Shown here piece after piece: positions 39,394-45,898 of a DNA stretch of 45,898 nucleotides. Position numbers and translations under genes: made by a program. Origin of the DNA: Bacteroidaceae bacterium (GTDB taxonomy: Bacteria; Bacteroidota; Bacteroidia; Bacteroidales; Bacteroidaceae). How positions within the stretch are numbered: the first letter of the stretch is position 1; every line of letters begins with the position of its first letter. The stretch lies in assembly GCA_017469685.1 (NCBI GenBank), contig JAFUFW010000004.1, positions 1 to 45,898 on the forward strand, read 5' to 3'. Under the pieces are notes generated by a model. That model did not search any database and was not told where the DNA came from. It was given only the letters and a program-made list of their open reading frames with translations.

Positions 39394-41433
39394 CTACTTC
39401 TTGAGGTATTTCCTTCCGCTACTTACCACAATGCCCTTGTAGTCGCCGCTGACATGCTGTCCGCTTAGGTTATAGAGCGGTGCGGCGTCACGCGTTGCCT
39501 GCGGCTGATTTATGCCCGTGGGCAGTGTTGCGAAATAGGGCCTATAGCCTGAGTGGAACAGAACCTGGTCACCAGTTTTGTTATAATCAAGAATGAAGCA
39601 GTACTGCTTGTCTGTCTTGAACAGATGCTCGTCGAAGAGGAACGAGAAATGCTTCGTCTCGCCCGGCGCGAGGTCCACGTAATAGAAGTGAGAAACAATC
39701 CCCGGACCAGAGTAGGCATGCCCGTCCTCTTCAGGAATCCCCTCTGAGAAGATTGCCATGATCCAGCTGTTGTAGCGTTCGGAAGAGACATTCGTAATGT
39801 CAGCTTCAACGTGTAGCTTCTCATAAATGCCTACGTCATACTTCCAGTCTTCGTCCCAGTAGAAGGTATTATCAGCTTGGTTATAATACATCCCTCTTAA
39901 GCCCTCCAGTGTAAGGTCTGCCGTAAGACGCCGCTCTTCAGGCTGATTCACCACCTCCAACGTGACCTCATGAATGACGTTGTTGCCTTCCCAGTCAGAT
40001 GTGATGCGTATAGGATACGAGCCTGTCTCAGAGGGCGTGGCAATGCATACCACCAAGTCGCCAGCCTGTCCTGGCTGCACATAAGTGCCTGCGCCGCCTA
40101 TCATCCGCCCGTCCATCCAGAGGAAGAGCGCGTTCTCGAGGGTCTCGCCCTCGTTGTGGTGGTTGATCACCGCCACCGTCTTCTGGCCTGCATAGGGGTT
40201 ATAGAAATGTACGTCGTCGACAACTATCTTCCCAGGGTTATCTTCCAGGTCAATACCTGCCGGCAGCTCCTGCAAAGGCACGTCGCTGGTGGCGGGCTGA
40301 AAGCCGAACACAGCCATCTGGTAAAGGTTGTAGCCGCTGAACTCCACCTGATTAGTCTGCAGCTCGCAGTCGTTGATGACATGCAGCTTGCAGTAGAAAT
40401 TTCCAGAATAGTAGCCAATCTCTCCCGTCACGGCATGGAAATAGCCGCGGCCATCGTAGCCGTCGATGATGAAGCTGTGGTTCTGAGCCAAAGCAGCTCC
40501 TGCTGAATAAGGCACAGGCCGCCCGGCAGCCAACTCGTTGTAGACCATCTCCTCCCAGGTGGCGCGCGGATAGGCAGCAGCCCGCACCATGCGGGCGTCG
40601 CTGCTGTAGCCGAAATACTTGGCTATGCGTTCCACGTCAAACACCGAAGCAGAGCCTTTGGAAGAATATTCCATGCCGAGGGCGCAGCCAGCATACATAA
40701 GGAGCTTCTGCACTGCTTCCAGCTGTGCCGGGGTGTAGTTGCAGTCGATGTGATCTGGCGCATAATAGTCCTGCATCTGACCGTAGTCGAAACTGGTAGG
40801 TGGCAGCTCAGGCATATCGATACCCGAGAAGGTAGTGTAGGCTGGAATGGGGATTGTGGTCTGGGCGGGATACTGATAATAGTACATCAACTGAGCCAGC
40901 GTGTTGGCCACGCAACCCGGCGCGCAACGCTCCCCCGTATTGGGGTCGAGGGGGCAGCTGTGGTAGTAGGGGTCGTACTGGTTCCAGCATGTGGTTATCA
41001 ACGGGTAGATGGGTTCGCGGTCCTGCTTCTGCAGTTCGGTATCGTTGCGGGCCGTGAAGAAGGGTGCGGCTGCAGCTGCTGCCACCTCACCGTCGAGGTA
41101 GGTGAGCATATCCTTCAGCGCACCTGAGCGGTGCAGGTCGGCGAAGGAGCCGCTATCGCTATAAGCCAAAACGGCATCTGTGCGGTCGTCGGCAGAGACG
41201 ACCACGAAGCCGCCGTCCGGACCGTTGTTGAACACATATAGGTTGTCGAAGGCTGCCTCCGTCAGTTGCAGCTCTGCGCTGAAGGCTTTTGCCTTCTTTG
41301 CGCCTGACTTGCCGGAGGTTACGGAGCCAAGAAATGAAGCTGCTTTTCCCCGTGCTTCCTCAAGCCCGACGGGGTTAGCCATCAGGAGGGTGCTCACGGA
41401 GAAGCAAGCCATTAAAAGGACATGTTTTCTCAT
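39394..41433 (-). CDS. C10 (streptopain/SpeB-like) cysteine protease-family protein with T9SS-type tail
   Basis: A 679-residue exported protein. After the signal peptide (MRKHVLLMACFSVSTLLMA) comes a Spi-type prodomain (about 21-125), then the papain-fold domain with Gln152 in TTCWNQYDP, nucleophile Cys174 in GCVANTLAQLMYYYQYP and His319 in NHSFIIDGYDGRGYFH. The NWGW motif expected after YFH is replaced by AVTGEIG, so activity is uncertain. Beta-sandwich modules of about 300 residues follow, and the protein ends in LYNLSGQHV...GRKYLKK, the short T9SS-type tail. The start is ATG at 41433; the longer frame upstream adds a non-signal sequence. Own promoter and terminator. Confidence 0.85.
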   Translation of the reverse strand: MRKHVLLMACFSVSTLLMANPVGLEEARGKAASFLGSVTSGKSGAKKAKAFSAELQLTEAAFDNLYVFNNGPDGGFVVVSADDRTDAVLAYSDSGSFADLHRSGALKDMLTYLDGEVAAAAAAPFFTARNDTELQKQDREPIYPLITTCWNQYDPYYHSCPLDPNTGERCAPGCVANTLAQLMYYYQYPAQTTIPIPAYTTFSGIDMPELPPTSFDYGQMQDYYAPDHIDCNYTPAQLEAVQKLLMYAGCALGMEYSSKGSASVFDVERIAKYFGYSSDARMVRAAAYPRATWEEMVYNELAAGRPVPYSAGAALAQNHSFIIDGYDGRGYFHAVTGEIGYYSGNFYCKLHVINDCELQTNQVEFSGYNLYQMAVFGFQPATSDVPLQELPAGIDLEDNPGKIVVDDVHFYNPYAGQKTVAVINHHNEGETLENALFLWMDGRMIGGAGTYVQPGQAGDLVVCIATPSETGSYPIRITSDWEGNNVIHEVTLEVVNQPEERRLTADLTLEGLRGMYYNQADNTFYWDEDWKYDVGIYEKLHVEADITNVSSERYNSWIMAIFSEGIPEEDGHAYSGPGIVSHFYYVDLAPGETKHFSFLFDEHLFKTDKQYCFILDYNKTGDQVLFHSGYRPYFATLPTGINQPQATRDAAPLYNLSGQHVSGDYKGIVVSSGRKYLKK

Positions 41434-41535
41434 ACGCGCGTGTATAAAATAATTAATGTATGTCTGCAGTATCCAATGCCTGTCAGACATGAATGAAATA
41501 ATATATAAACTGGTTGATATGCTTTATTATTGCGG

Positions 41536-41587
41536 CAAAGATATACATTATATATGAAACTCTATTTGTCTATTTTTAACAAAATGA
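41536..41587 (-). promoter_or_regulatory. Promoter and upstream element of the protease gene
   Basis: TATCTTTG (41536-41543) on the minus strand, preceded by the A/T-rich element at 41564-41587 (TCATTTTGTTAAAAATAGAC and on) shared with the decayed gene's promoter at 37989. The leader is about 100 bases. Confidence 0.6.
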
Positions 41588-41596
41588 CTGAGCTTA

Positions 41597-41640
41597 CCAA
41601 AAAACTCCGGGCACCTGCGCTGAGGTGTCCGGAGTTTTTA
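41597..41640 (-). terminator. Rho-independent terminator of the giant surface-protein gene
   Basis: AACTCCGGACACCT pairs with AGGTGCCCGGAGTT (14-base stem with one G-T pair), with a T-run after it on both strands. It lies just after the stop codon of the cysteine-rich gene. Confidence 0.85.
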
Positions 41641-41655
41641 TTGTTAGCATGTGAT

Positions 41656-44600
41656 TTACTTCACAGCCACTTTCGTTCCGTTCACGATGTTGACGCCACG
41701 GCTGACATCGCTGAGGCGGCGGCCAGCAATGTCATAGACGCCAACCACAGCGCCGCGTTCGCTGTTCATTGCAGCGTTGATGCCGGTGACTATGGCCTTG
41801 TTGATAGTGGCCTCGTTAGCGCCGAACCATACGTCGTCAATGACGGAGTTGTCGAGCGTCAGCTTCAGCACAGGCAGGGCGAACTGGCTCTTCTGCGCGC
41901 CTTCGAGGGTTACGGCATACTTCACGTCGCCAGTGCCACGGTCGATGACAACCTCGTTCTGGGCGTATGCGGGCAGGCTGTAGGAGAAGGTGCCGTCCTC
42001 GTTCTGGCTGACGACAACGCCCTCGACGGTGAACTCAGGAATGACGGCGCCCGTCACAGGCATGGTGAAGCCGCTGTAAGTGATGTTCACCTCGCCCGGA
42101 TCTTCGGCAGGCATGATGGTCACCGTCTGCTCGCCGGTGGCCTCGCCCTGCTTGCCCGTCTGCGGGTGGGAGACGATCTGCATGAGCGCGCCGTCGAAGA
42201 TGAGAGGCTTCACGCCTACCCATGTCAGCTCAGCAGGCACCTCCTTGCAGATGGTCACCCACGAGTCGCCGGCCTTGAGCACCAGCTCGGCTGCTTCGAT
42301 GGTTATCTTATCGTAGGTATAGCCATATTTAAGCATCTCGGGGAAGTCGTTTTCGCCAAGAGGTATGTAGAAGATCTCGCTGGTGACGACGTGTGCCGTC
42401 TTCGAGGTGGGTGGCAGCTCCTTGCCGCTGACGTCGCCCGAGAGGCTCACCGTCAGCTTCACGGCTACCTCATCCTCTGCGATTTCGTTCTCGTCGAGAT
42501 AGTTGGTGGCGAAAGTAACCTTCAGCGGTTCATCGGCAGAAAGCATGGTGGGCTCGGCCTCCGTGCCGCTGGCGATGCTGAACTCAGGAGCAAGCAGCTC
42601 AACGCGGTGGCGCACGGAGATGATGTAAGATGTCTTCGACGACTTGTAGTAGTCATTGCCAGAGAAGGAAGCGGTAATCGTAGCGGTACCTGCATGGATA
42701 GGCTTCACCACGCCTGTAGAGGCATCGACAACGGCCACGCTGTTGTCCGACGACGTCCACTTCACGGTCATGCCATCCTCTGGCAGTGCCAGCTTGGGAG
42801 CGTCCATAGGCTCACCAATATATGCTATGAGAGCATCATCGCCGGCCTCAACGCTCATCTCCGGTTCTGCCTTCTTTATGGTGAAGCCTACGGTAATCTC
42901 AGGAGCTGTGAACTCCGTGGTGGCACCGGAGGCTATAAGCACTTCCGTCAGGCTGATGACTTCCTTATCGCCAGCCGATGCCTTGCTGAGCACACCTGCC
43001 ACATCTGGCGTCACGGTCAGCTTCATGCCATTGACTTCGATCTTGGTGGTGCCTCCGAGGGCTGTCTCTGCGACTTTGCTGAGAGCCGCCACGGCATCGT
43101 GGCCCGTTGATGTGAAGGTCACAGTCTGTGCTGCGGGTTCCTCGCCATAGATCCAAGTGAAGTTGAGAGTTTTCTTATCGGCCTTCAAGGCATAGTCTGA
43201 GCCATCATAGTCGAATAAGCGGGTCTCGGTGTGAGTGTCATCGTTGCAGCAGACGCGCTGCTCCAGACCCTTGAGTGCAGGCGTAGCCTCGCGAACGACC
43301 TTCCAGTCACCCCAGTCGTGCCCCGTGCGCGGATCTTTCTGGCCTCTCTTTACCAAGGCCTTGCAGAACTTACAGTATGCATCGCCCGTAAAGCCGTCTA
43401 CGGTGCAGGTGGGATTAACGTAATTATCGTTCTCGTAGACGTTAGCCCAGGTATTGTTCCACTCTTCCGACATTCCATACTTGCCGTGCTTGACTGGTGT
43501 TTTGCTGCCCTTGACGGTCTTGTGGCAACGGTTGCAAAGATAGTCGCCGCTGTAGCCATTCTTTGCGTCTGAAGGTGTGCCATTGTTATAGGCGCAGTAA
43601 GATATGTCCTCTGTGCCGGCGATGGGCGCCTCAGCGCGGTCGTGGCCCAAAGCGGGGATACGTTCGCCCTCATTGATGACGGCTCCGCAGTCTACGCAAA
43701 CGTCGTCGGGCTCATGACCATAGCCTTCGCAGGTTGGTTCTAAACGCTCACCCTTCTCTGTGCCGCCACTATGGTCGCAGCTGCCGATGTAAGCCTCAAG
43801 GCCTACAGCGCCTTCGGGCATCGTGAAGGTAATGACCTTAGAGTTCATGTTAGGTGTGACGGCAGGCATTGGCACGAGCGGGCCACCCTCCCAGTACTGG
43901 TCTTTCCAGTAGGAGCCATCAGTCCACTTCGAGCCGGGAACCTTGTCGTAGGTGATGGTTACCGTGGTGCCAGGAGTGGTAGCGTCGACATTAGCAGTGC
44001 CGCCATAGACCATGACGGGATATGTGCCATAGTCGTAGTGCTTCTTCTCAACATAGGGGCACCAGACACATGCGCGCTGAATAGTGCCTCCCTTCGTAGC
44101 CGTAGCCTTGTTGACGATACTCCAGGGCTCGAAGGTGTGACGCACGGCATTAACTTGGTCGCAGCTCTCGCAATGTGAGTAGTGCTGAACAGAGCTATAG
44201 CCTGCTTTGCCCGACTCAAAGTTAGCATAGCTGAGATCGTAGAAGTGATGCGTATGTGGCAGTTTGTCGATGTTCTCGGTCTTCGTAATGCCACAGACTG
44301 TACACTTAATTTCCTGCTTGCCAAGCTTCTTCTCGGTGGGTTCGACGGTTACCACGGGCGAGCTCCAGGTGTGGATCTCTGCCGGATCTGTACTAAGTAC
44401 GCCGCAGATGCAGGAGAACCAGTGGTCTGTCATACTGTAGTAAACTTGGTCGAAGACGTGGACATGGCCGGGCTCCACCTTCGGGATTATTTCCTTATTC
44501 TTTGTCTCGCAGTCCATACAAGTCTGCTCGCGCAGGCCCTCTTGAGCATCAGTTGCAGCGCGTACGAGCTTCCATTCGCCAAAGCGGTGCTTCGACACTT

Positions 44601-45898
44601 TCTTCACCCCGCTACATTCGCCTAAGCACATGTAGGAGTGTGTGCCGTCGCCATTATTAACATAGTGACCGAAGACGTGCTGGGGATTGATGACAACGGT
44701 GTTGGACTGTGCGCTGCCGTTGGCGTTGGAGACTACGCAGTAGAACTTATGATTGATTGAGCCGTCGCAGTCGTCAGTATGTACGAGTGCTGTCAGCGTG
44801 GCAGTGTGTGTGCCAGAGAAATATCCATCCTCATCTTCGAGGGCCTTTACATTTCCGCTCTTCTGCAACCAATACCACTGATAGGTCAGGTCCTTACCTC
44901 CGGCACGCACCTTGAAGGAGGCGAAGCGGTCGGGGTCTGTCGTCCAGGCACTGGTGTTGGTCTTGCCGGTGTAGTCCTTAGGCTGGTTGATGATGTATGG
45001 TGAGCCATCCTCGGGTATGGTCACGAAGGGAACGCTGACGGTGTTCATCAGCTGGTCGCAGATGGCGCATGAGATCCTGGCGGTGCCGTTCCTACGGCTT
45101 ACGGGGTCAGGCTCTACGATGTTCACGGGCACGCCCTCGGTGTGGATGGCGCGGTCAACGGCAAGTCCACAGTCGGCACATACGTGCCAGTGTGCCTTGT
45201 GGTCGGAGCTCCAAGAGGTGCTAACGTTCGTGTGGGCGCAGTCGGCTTCGTGCTCGCAGAGCTCGAGGCATTGGTTGTCCTCATAGCACCAATGTTCGGC
45301 GAAGTCGTCGCTCTCTACGCAGAGCTCATGGTCGCAACCTTCCGCCTCTGTGTTGGCGAGGCAGCAGGTCGGGCAAAGGTCGCAATACTCGCAAGGCTCA
45401 TCGCCTTCGTAGCACTCGTCACACTGCGGGCAAATGAAGTGGTCGAACGAGTCGGAGTCGTCGCCATCAGGGCAGTAGCCATGGTCGCAATGGTAGCTTG
45501 AGGCGCAGTTCTCACACTTGCCGCAGTACTCACAAAGATCATCAAGTTCTGAACATTCACCGCAGTCGGTGCAGATATGGTCTTCCCACTCGTCGCCATC
45601 TGGGCATAGGCCATGGCCGCAGTGGTAGTCTTCCTGGCAGTCCTCGCACAAGCCACAGTACTCACACTCGGTGTCCTGAGGACAATGCATACAATTCGGG
45701 CAGAGGTGGTCAGCAAAGTCAGAAGAGAAAATGCAGAATCCATGCGTGCAGTCCTCATCATTCTCTGTGAAGTCGGAACAGCAAATCTCGCAATATCCGC
45801 AATCGTTGCATAGATCGATACCTAACGCCTCAGTGCAACGGTCGCATAAATCACATTTATATCCTTCCTCCTCACAACAAATTGAACAATGATCACCT
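41656..45898 (-). CDS. Giant cysteine-rich surface protein with Big_2-like domain and T9SS-type tail (5' end outside window)
   Basis: The reading frame is open from the window edge (codons from 45897) to the stop at 41656, at least 1413 residues; an internal Met at 45690 is not the start. In order: tandem Cys/His repeats of 44-48 residues (CEYCGLCEDC, HCGHGLCPDGDE, DHICTDCGEC), an Ig-like segment (about 45200-44650), several modules of the type GHxWxxW...C-x-x-C known mainly from Firmicutes surface proteins (about 44650-43250), Ig-like regions, a Big_2-like domain (VKWTSSDNSVAVVDASTGVV), more beta domains and the tail VYDIAGRRLSDVSRGVNIV...KVAVK. It is probably anchored at the cell surface; the ligand is unknown. 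The paired cysteines could bind metal or form disulfides. Confidence 0.8.
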   Translation of the reverse strand, partial: GDHCSICCEEEGYKCDLCDRCTEALGIDLCNDCGYCEICCSDFTENDEDCTHGFCIFSSDFADHLCPNCMHCPQDTECEYCGLCEDCQEDYHCGHGLCPDGDEWEDHICTDCGECSELDDLCEYCGKCENCASSYHCDHGYCPDGDDSDSFDHFICPQCDECYEGDEPCEYCDLCPTCCLANTEAEGCDHELCVESDDFAEHWCYEDNQCLELCEHEADCAHTNVSTSWSSDHKAHWHVCADCGLAVDRAIHTEGVPVNIVEPDPVSRRNGTARISCAICDQLMNTVSVPFVTIPEDGSPYIINQPKDYTGKTNTSAWTTDPDRFASFKVRAGGKDLTYQWYWLQKSGNVKALEDEDGYFSGTHTATLTALVHTDDCDGSINHKFYCVVSNANGSAQSNTVVINPQHVFGHYVNNGDGTHSYMCLGECSGVKKVSKHRFGEWKLVRAATDAQEGLREQTCMDCETKNKEIIPKVEPGHVHVFDQVYYSMTDHWFSCICGVLSTDPAEIHTWSSPVVTVEPTEKKLGKQEIKCTVCGITKTENIDKLPHTHHFYDLSYANFESGKAGYSSVQHYSHCESCDQVNAVRHTFEPWSIVNKATATKGGTIQRACVWCPYVEKKHYDYGTYPVMVYGGTANVDATTPGTTVTITYDKVPGSKWTDGSYWKDQYWEGGPLVPMPAVTPNMNSKVITFTMPEGAVGLEAYIGSCDHSGGTEKGERLEPTCEGYGHEPDDVCVDCGAVINEGERIPALGHDRAEAPIAGTEDISYCAYNNGTPSDAKNGYSGDYLCNRCHKTVKGSKTPVKHGKYGMSEEWNNTWANVYENDNYVNPTCTVDGFTGDAYCKFCKALVKRGQKDPRTGHDWGDWKVVREATPALKGLEQRVCCNDDTHTETRLFDYDGSDYALKADKKTLNFTWIYGEEPAAQTVTFTSTGHDAVAALSKVAETALGGTTKIEVNGMKLTVTPDVAGVLSKASAGDKEVISLTEVLIASGATTEFTAPEITVGFTIKKAEPEMSVEAGDDALIAYIGEPMDAPKLALPEDGMTVKWTSSDNSVAVVDASTGVVKPIHAGTATITASFSGNDYYKSSKTSYIISVRHRVELLAPEFSIASGTEAEPTMLSADEPLKVTFATNYLDENEIAEDEVAVKLTVSLSGDVSGKELPPTSKTAHVVTSEIFYIPLGENDFPEMLKYGYTYDKITIEAAELVLKAGDSWVTICKEVPAELTWVGVKPLIFDGALMQIVSHPQTGKQGEATGEQTVTIMPAEDPGEVNITYSGFTMPVTGAVIPEFTVEGVVVSQNEDGTFSYSLPAYAQNEVVIDRGTGDVKYAVTLEGAQKSQFALPVLKLTLDNSVIDDVWFGANEATINKAIVTGINAAMNSERGAVVGVYDIAGRRLSDVSRGVNIVNGTKVAVK
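45259..45810 (-). repeat. Four tandem Cys/His-rich protein repeats
   Basis: Coding units at 45667-45810, 45535-45666, 45394-45534 and 45259-45393 (48, 44, 47 and 45 codons). The shared pattern is C-x2-C-x2-C-x2-C, 4-9 residues, C-x-H-x-x-C, 8-12 residues, H-x-C-x2-C-x2-C, partly degenerate in the last unit. Further related cysteine-rich sequence continues to the window edge. Confidence 0.8.

What the first reader, a model, noticed from the sequence alone, without database searches (positions are those of the whole stretch)
41656..45898. Giant secreted protein built from tandem Cys/His repeats followed by Firmicutes-style C-x-x-C modules
Read directly: at least four 44-48-residue repeats, each with 7-9 cysteines and conserved His, continue beyond the window. 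They are followed by GHxWxxW...CxxC modules, Ig-like and Big_2-like domains, and a T9SS tail. Densely paired C-x2-C and H-x-C motifs look like metal-binding knuckles, which would be unusual on an exported Bacteroidales protein; the second module type is one I know mainly from Firmicutes adhesins, hinting at transfer. Whether the cysteines bind Zn/Fe or form disulfides cannot be read.
Basis: partly seen in the sequence, partly recalled or inferred. Interest (0 to 1): 0.75.

Follow-up and report, generated by a model that had tools for sequence, protein, structure and literature searches.

The report
Secreted metal-knuckle surface protein family
This gut bacterium encodes a very long exported protein whose outer end is packed with conserved cysteines and histidines laid out like metal-binding knuckles, part of a family shared by two distant bacterial groups and without a clear match in the protein-family and structure libraries searched.

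Summary
The gene (window 41656-45897, minus) has four 43-50-residue units with 9-10 Cys each, then HW..CxxC modules, a predicted I-set Ig domain and Big_2. The window ends inside it; its 5' end lies on contig C54 (13-base overlap, same frame).

The Cys/His-rich domain has no convincing Pfam, NCBIfam or PDB match (best: PDB E 0.036). Relatives: 12 of 139 genomes of its genus, G000 included, and Clostridia. The following Ig region is homologous in 6 of 7 Clostridia proteins; the surface tails differ. Vescimonas fastidiosa has a short version.

Metal ligation is favoured over disulfides: in 16 non-redundant rows 78 of 81 Cys and 19 of 22 His columns are invariant, and VKOR and DsbB were not found in 13 of 13 carriers searched. 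Two distant Clostridia rows keep the Cys better than the His. No metal was measured.

Best reading: a surface-tethered fibre with a protease-proof metal-thiolate head, working like protozoan CXXC coats without belonging to them as tested. Transfer is supported; its direction is open.

The parts
41656..45897 (-). Gene for the giant exported protein; 5' end missing from the window
   Evidence: the 5' end with signal peptide (by eye) is on contig C54:1-792 minus
45859..45897 (-). End of the N-terminal half of the Cys/His-rich domain (GDHCSICCEEEGY)
   Evidence: the GDHC codons are read in the same frame at the start of C54
45709..45858 (-). Cys/His unit 1 (50 aa, 10 Cys, 1 His)
45580..45708 (-). 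Cys/His unit 2 (43 aa, 9 Cys, 4 His)
45442..45579 (-). Cys/His unit 3 (46 aa, 9 Cys, 3 His)
45295..45441 (-). Cys/His unit 4 (49 aa, 10 Cys, 2 His)
45229..45294 (-). Cap of the Cys/His-rich domain (22 aa, 4 Cys, 3 His)
45055..45192 (-). HW..C..CG...C..C module 1, predicted zinc-ribbon-like pair of hairpins
   Evidence: pLDDT about 69-76 here
44677..45009 (-). I-set Ig domain (protein residues about 297-407)
44458..44640 (-). CxxC/His module 2
44263..44460 (-). HW..C.CG...C..C module 3
43978..44235 (-). CxxC/His module 4; borders approximate
43228..43791 (-). Further CxxC/His modules (CxxC at residues 734, 788, 842); borders approximate
42670..42768 (-). Big_2 bacterial Ig-like domain
   Evidence: PF02368, E 1e-5
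41659..41748 (-). C-terminal tail ending VYDIAGRRLSDVSRGVNIVNGTKVAVK, sorting-signal-like
   Evidence: sequence; similar tails on neighbouring exported proteins by eye; no curated T9SS model matched

Best explanation
It is a secreted, surface-tethered fibrillar protein. Its outer, N-terminal part is a tandem array of Cys/His knuckles that most likely hold zinc (or another thiophilic metal) after export into an oxygen-free gut. Next come zinc-ribbon-like hairpin modules, an I-set Ig domain and Big_2 as stalk, and a tail that fixes it to the cell surface. The metal-thiolate head gives a compact, protease-resistant, very acidic tip that is either a coat or the binding tip of an adhesin, in some loci probably working beside carbohydrate-binding beta-helix or leucine-rich surface proteins. 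Shown: architecture, family spread, Cys/His conservation. Read by eye: the export signal. Inferred: metal bound in vivo, which metal, protease resistance, adhesion.
Against: No metal has been measured, and AlphaFold2 carries none. His is less constant than Cys outside the close group: where L038 and L039 have a residue, they keep 62 of 68 and 59 of 65 Cys columns but only 5 of 14 and 7 of 13 His columns, and no His column is invariant in the 19 rows. The Cys-rich model is middling (pLDDT 76, pTM 0.48), its PDB matches are weak, and Foldseek's list (best E 0.46) also holds megalin and clearly unrelated enzymes. CxxC motifs can form disulfides too, and metal and/or disulfides are named for the protozoan coats. 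Cys totals are odd in 13 of 21 full-domain rows, but this depends on borders that I chose. DsbA-like enzymes were not searched, and only 1 of the 13 genomes is told to be at least 90% complete. Neighbours are mixed. No binding target is known.
Confidence: 0.5

Rival explanations
1. Disulfide-armoured surface protein: the cysteines pair after export into disulfides and the histidines serve another purpose.
For: Secreted Cys-rich proteins are usually disulfide-linked (established knowledge); megalin chains, recalled as disulfide-rich, are among the weak Foldseek rows; metal and/or disulfides are named for protozoan CXXC coats; in the two distant Clostridia rows Cys is kept far better than His.
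Against: His nearly as invariant as Cys in the 16 close rows; no VKOR or DsbB in 13 of 13 carriers searched; odd Cys totals in 13 of 21 rows, borders mine.
Confidence: 0.2
2. Extracellular metallothionein-like metal store or scavenger: the domain's purpose is to trap Zn, Cu or Cd at the cell surface.
For: About 100 potential ligands and about 25% Asp+Glu per 480 residues; unit number can vary: L020 has an extra stretch of about 43 residues.
Against: None of the 7 neighbour clusters seen in at least 3 of the 18 sources looked, by eye, like a metal transporter or metal regulator (only some were put to Pfam). Spacing is rigidly conserved and an Ig/CxxC stalk follows, which points to a folded structure.
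Confidence: 0.13
3. Thiol-reactive adhesin or redox buffer: reduced cysteines form mixed disulfides with mucin or keratin, or quench oxidants.
For: Very high thiol density at the outer end of a surface protein in anaerobes.
Against: Does not need conserved His or fixed C-x2-C spacing, both seen in the close rows.
Confidence: 0.07
4. Composition artefact: unrelated Cys-rich proteins that match each other only through cysteine content.
For: Cys-rich domains give inflated scores in general.
Against: 7 of 7 Clostridia rows beat all 20 shuffles that keep every C and H; the following Ig region is homologous in 6 of 7, with 0 of 140 shuffles at E 0.01.
Confidence: 0.02

Closest known systems
Giardia variant-specific surface proteins (VSP, PF03302) and similar CXXC-rich proteins of ciliates and Entamoeba
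   Same: Exported, Cys-rich with many CXXC, on the surface of gut or free-living protozoa; substoichiometric zinc binding and metal-dependent protease resistance reported (PMC2996952 and PMC6341118, passages)
   Different: PF03302 not among the Pfam matches; CxxCxxC arrays with conserved His; no terminal membrane span in the window protein; bacterial, with Ig and Big_2 domains
Bacterial fibrillar adhesins (PMC9210967, passages)
   Same: Long, anchored, Big_2/Ig-type domains and a distal N-terminal domain without annotation
   Different: The distal domain is a Cys/His array without a convincing library match; adhesion untested
Zinc ribbons (TFIIB/Brf N-terminal type, recalled)
   Same: CxxC...CxxC on paired hairpins predicted in the HW modules
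   Different: Extracellular, in tandem, extra conserved His and Trp; metal not shown
Cthe_2159 carbohydrate-binding beta-helix (PF14262; binds celluloses and acid sugars per PMC6712302, passages)
   Same: Fused to one family member (L061) and next gene to another (L039)
   Different: A partner, not the Cys-rich domain itself; absent from the window protein

Membership tests
Giardia VSP (PF03302) | Match to the Pfam profile | tested here: not met
   Window protein at E up to 1 and the 10 A1 domains at E up to 10 (HMMER's filters drop most matches above 0.1): not listed
Giardia VSP (PF03302) | C-terminal membrane span with a short conserved cytoplasmic tail | tested here: not met
   Window protein ends ...NIVNGTKVAVK, no terminal hydrophobic span by eye; feature from passage
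Fibrillar adhesin | Length, stalk domains and surface anchor | tested here: met
   Big_2, Ig fold; in relatives SLH and dockerin, sortase-type tail read by eye. For the window protein itself the anchor is only a tail that looks like a sorting signal
Fibrillar adhesin | Binds a surface or glycan | not testable with these tools
   No binding data
T9SS cargo | Match to a curated C-terminal sorting domain | tested here: not met
   No such family at E up to 1 in NCBIfam for the window protein, L003 or L032, nor in Pfam for the window protein
T9SS cargo | Secretion pore SprA in the genome | tested here: met
   TIGR04189, 2640 bits
Zinc ribbon (HW..CxxC modules) | Two CxxC knuckles on beta hairpins | tested here: met
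   Model strands 12-17/23-28 around C17, C20 and 48-54/60-66 around C54, C57; a prediction, not a solved structure
Zinc ribbon (HW..CxxC modules) | Bound zinc | not testable with these tools
   No metal measurement
RING/RBR/LIM/PHD zinc domains (Cys-rich units) | Same fold | tested here: inconclusive
Metallothionein | Match to a library profile | tested here: not met
   Not among Pfam matches at E up to 10 for 10 members (filters as above)

The most novel reading that the evidence does not exclude
A bacterial counterpart of the protozoan CXXC coat: an extracellular zinc-thiolate array with about 100 Cys/His ligands (room for some 25 metal ions) forming the outer tip of giant surface fibres. 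It is possible because the gut is anaerobic, is passed between Clostridia and Bacteroidales, and is re-fitted with whatever anchor the new host uses.
Probability: 0.4. Interest if true: 0.78.

Novelty: new variant of a known kind. Interest (0 to 1): 0.62.

Why it matters
Exported bacterial proteins usually have few cysteines (general knowledge; 22 other long open frames of the window have 0-3.1%). A conserved extracellular domain with about 17% Cys plus conserved His, in anaerobes in which two known disulfide oxidases were not found, would mean that metal-thiolate folds can be built and kept outside the cell in the gut. It would be a new way to make protease-proof surface fibres and a new uncharacterised domain family. 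The short protein of the named strain Vescimonas fastidiosa MM35 makes the question directly testable.

Tried and rejected
Known domain: Pfam, NCBIfam and PDB sequence searches gave nothing convincing for the Cys-rich part. Two weak rows were set aside: DUF1272 in 2 of 10 members, best E 0.054, and PDB 2jz8 (uncharacterised BH09830), E 0.036 over 44 residues in and near unit 4.

Phage or plasmid carriage: 16 stretches in viral contigs matched a pattern but 0 encoded a relative. One plasmid record of 72,556, the 861-kb pMM35_01 of Vescimonas fastidiosa, held a relative. The 'phages' collection was not searched.

L033 as a misbinned Bacteroidales contig: judged unlikely; its GC of 0.45 lies in the 0.41-0.47 of four other contigs of its genome, its codon use leans to that genome (+0.15 to +0.16 per codon) though less than five comparison genes (+0.25 to +0.34), and its C-terminal half carries Flg_new repeats.

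First thought that all recurring big neighbours were beta-helix proteins: corrected; L021's neighbour is LRR + dockerin. Carbohydrate neighbours are not universal.

Direction of transfer: unresolved; long branches, support 84/86 for Oscillospirales against the rest, L033 not separable from Bacteroidales.

Papers: four searches on rumen, zinc-ribbon, Prevotella/T9SS and Oscillospiraceae terms listed no paper whose title or abstract start describes this family; one search showed 10 of 65. Most papers of subscription journals, and preprints, are missing from that library. A search for disulfide systems in anaerobes found nothing useful.
Full report
What is there. The finding lies in one open frame, 41656-45897 minus, 1413 codons, which runs off the contig end; the window is the whole contig C87 of an incomplete genome, G000. 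The missing 5' end is on contig C54: a profile of the domain matched positions 2-229 at C54:1-669 minus, where the window begins at 226. C54 starts with the same 13 bases with which the window ends, in the same frame (GDHC on both), and reads back to what looks like a signal peptide, MTDICRRELRATLTLVALIGLMHPAHA (by eye, no predictor). The whole protein would be about 1659 aa (arithmetic). A second, full-length copy lies about 77-82 kb into C54 (L003, 1588 aa), 59% identical over the 318 residues matched.

Family. Relatives were found in 5 of 101 near genomes, 3 of 301 genomes drawn from the family and 12 of 139 genomes of the genus, G000 included each time, with up to four copies per genome. 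A pattern-based scan of 84,980 species genomes gave 20 confirmed loci out of 209 stretches: 17 titled Bacteroidales or below, one Lachnospiraceae (L033), one Ruminococcaceae (L038) and one Oscillospiraceae (L039). Of the 17 Bacteroidales titles 13 name a ruminant or one of its stomach or gut parts. Further members: 6 of 295 genomes in the order of L039's genome, that genome and one weak case (G685, not read further) included; I call this order Oscillospirales from L039's title, as the tool names no groups. 1 of 250 in L033's family, itself; 1 of 398 in the phylum, L039's own genome. Vescimonas fastidiosa MM35, human source, has a 518-aa version (tblastn E 3e-4). Its Cys-rich part scores 33.9 bits on the Bacteroidales profile against at most 9.8 in 50 shuffles that keep C and H, and 80.4 on the Clostridia profile against at most 43.5.

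Homology, not composition. All 7 Clostridia domains tested outscore their 20 C/H-keeping shuffles. The region after the Cys-rich domain matches the Bacteroidales Ig profile in 6 of 7 (E 4e-22 to 6e-105; L038 does not), with no shuffle of 140 at E 0.01 (a first run with the speed filters on showed only 3 of 7). L033 is 46-53% identical to Bacteroidales rows over the domain, yet its GC fits its own genome and its codon use leans that way, though less than five comparison genes, and it carries Flg_new repeats; so I take it as a real cross-phylum relative. The tree puts the Oscillospirales rows on one side (84/86) and does not separate L033 from Bacteroidales; long branches and odd make-up of L033 and L038 are flagged, and direction is open. 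The two copies in the window genome fall in different clades, W with reindeer L032 and L003 with L020.

Anchors. The same head is attached to different surface tails: Bacteroidales sorting-like tails (by eye); dockerin type I in L039 and Prevotella L021 (L022 ends alike by eye); SLH in L038; a terminal hydrophobic span in L059 and L060 (by eye); a TPQTG sortase-type end in Vescimonas (motif recalled and read by eye). This says that the protein works outside the cell, at the surface.

Neighbourhood. In G000 the gene follows, about 146 bases apart on the same strand, an exported beta-helix-like repeat protein that is the only match in the genome at E 1e-6; a 43% identical protein stands beside the window gene's near orthologue in a reindeer genome. 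In Clostridia, a Cthe_2159 carbohydrate-binding beta-helix is fused into L061 and is the next gene in L039, and Bacteroidales neighbour proteins resemble L061's end (L024 neighbour E 1e-15; G000 neighbour E about 2e-5; E-values for a comparison with a few sequences only). In one search, with 18 sources (L045 and the window are one locus counted twice), the cluster of TPR-AraC or hybrid kinase-AraC regulators is in 5 (two of them checked by Pfam), the beta-helix/LRR cluster in 4 and an LRR_5 cluster in 4. Several members show other, ordinary-looking neighbours (by eye). So a link to plant polysaccharide is a lead, not a rule.

Mechanism proposed. A fibre with a metal-knuckle tip: made, exported by Sec, loaded with zinc outside, tethered by the local anchor, and stable against rumen and gut proteases; every step after export is inference. 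The nearest working parallel is the protozoan CXXC coat: a Giardia VSP became trypsin-sensitive after reducing agents or chelators, reversed by metal (PMC6341118, passages); zinc binding of VSPs is reported in substoichiometric amounts (PMC2996952, passages). Membership in that family was tested by Pfam and not met.

Novelty. The domain has no convincing match in the libraries searched, and the paper searches listed in Tried and rejected showed nothing. The general kind (CXXC-rich surface protein; fibrillar adhesin) is known, so I file it as a new variant of a known kind.

Noticed in passing
window 39394-41490 (-): C10 peptidase (streptopain-type, PF01640 E 5e-40) with an N-terminal Spi-inhibitor-like domain, next gene downstream, 165 bases from the giant gene, with a similar C-terminal tail by eye.
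   Followed up: partly
L038 9806-15979, protein residues 1694-1768: An SLH-bearing exported protein carries an elongation-factor-Tu domain 2 match (E 4e-15), odd for a surface protein.
   Followed up: no
L021 9917-14872 and 15302-19564: Prevotella MAG with two neighbouring exported proteins that both end in type I dockerin, the second with LRR repeats.
   Followed up: partly
L020 10016-11551: An extra stretch of about 43 residues, like one more unit, in the Cys-rich array: unit number varies.
   Followed up: no
L045 900-4244 (-): Exported 1115-aa beta-helix-like repeat protein upstream of the window gene, only match in the genome at E 1e-6, no Pfam family at its cut-off.
   Followed up: partly
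window 41530-43110 (+): 526-aa open frame mostly antisense to the giant gene; looks like a shadow frame.
   Followed up: no
L065 8853-13553 (+): Next to the Vescimonas relative, a 1566-aa protein annotated as cadherin-like with a sortase-type end by eye.
   Followed up: no
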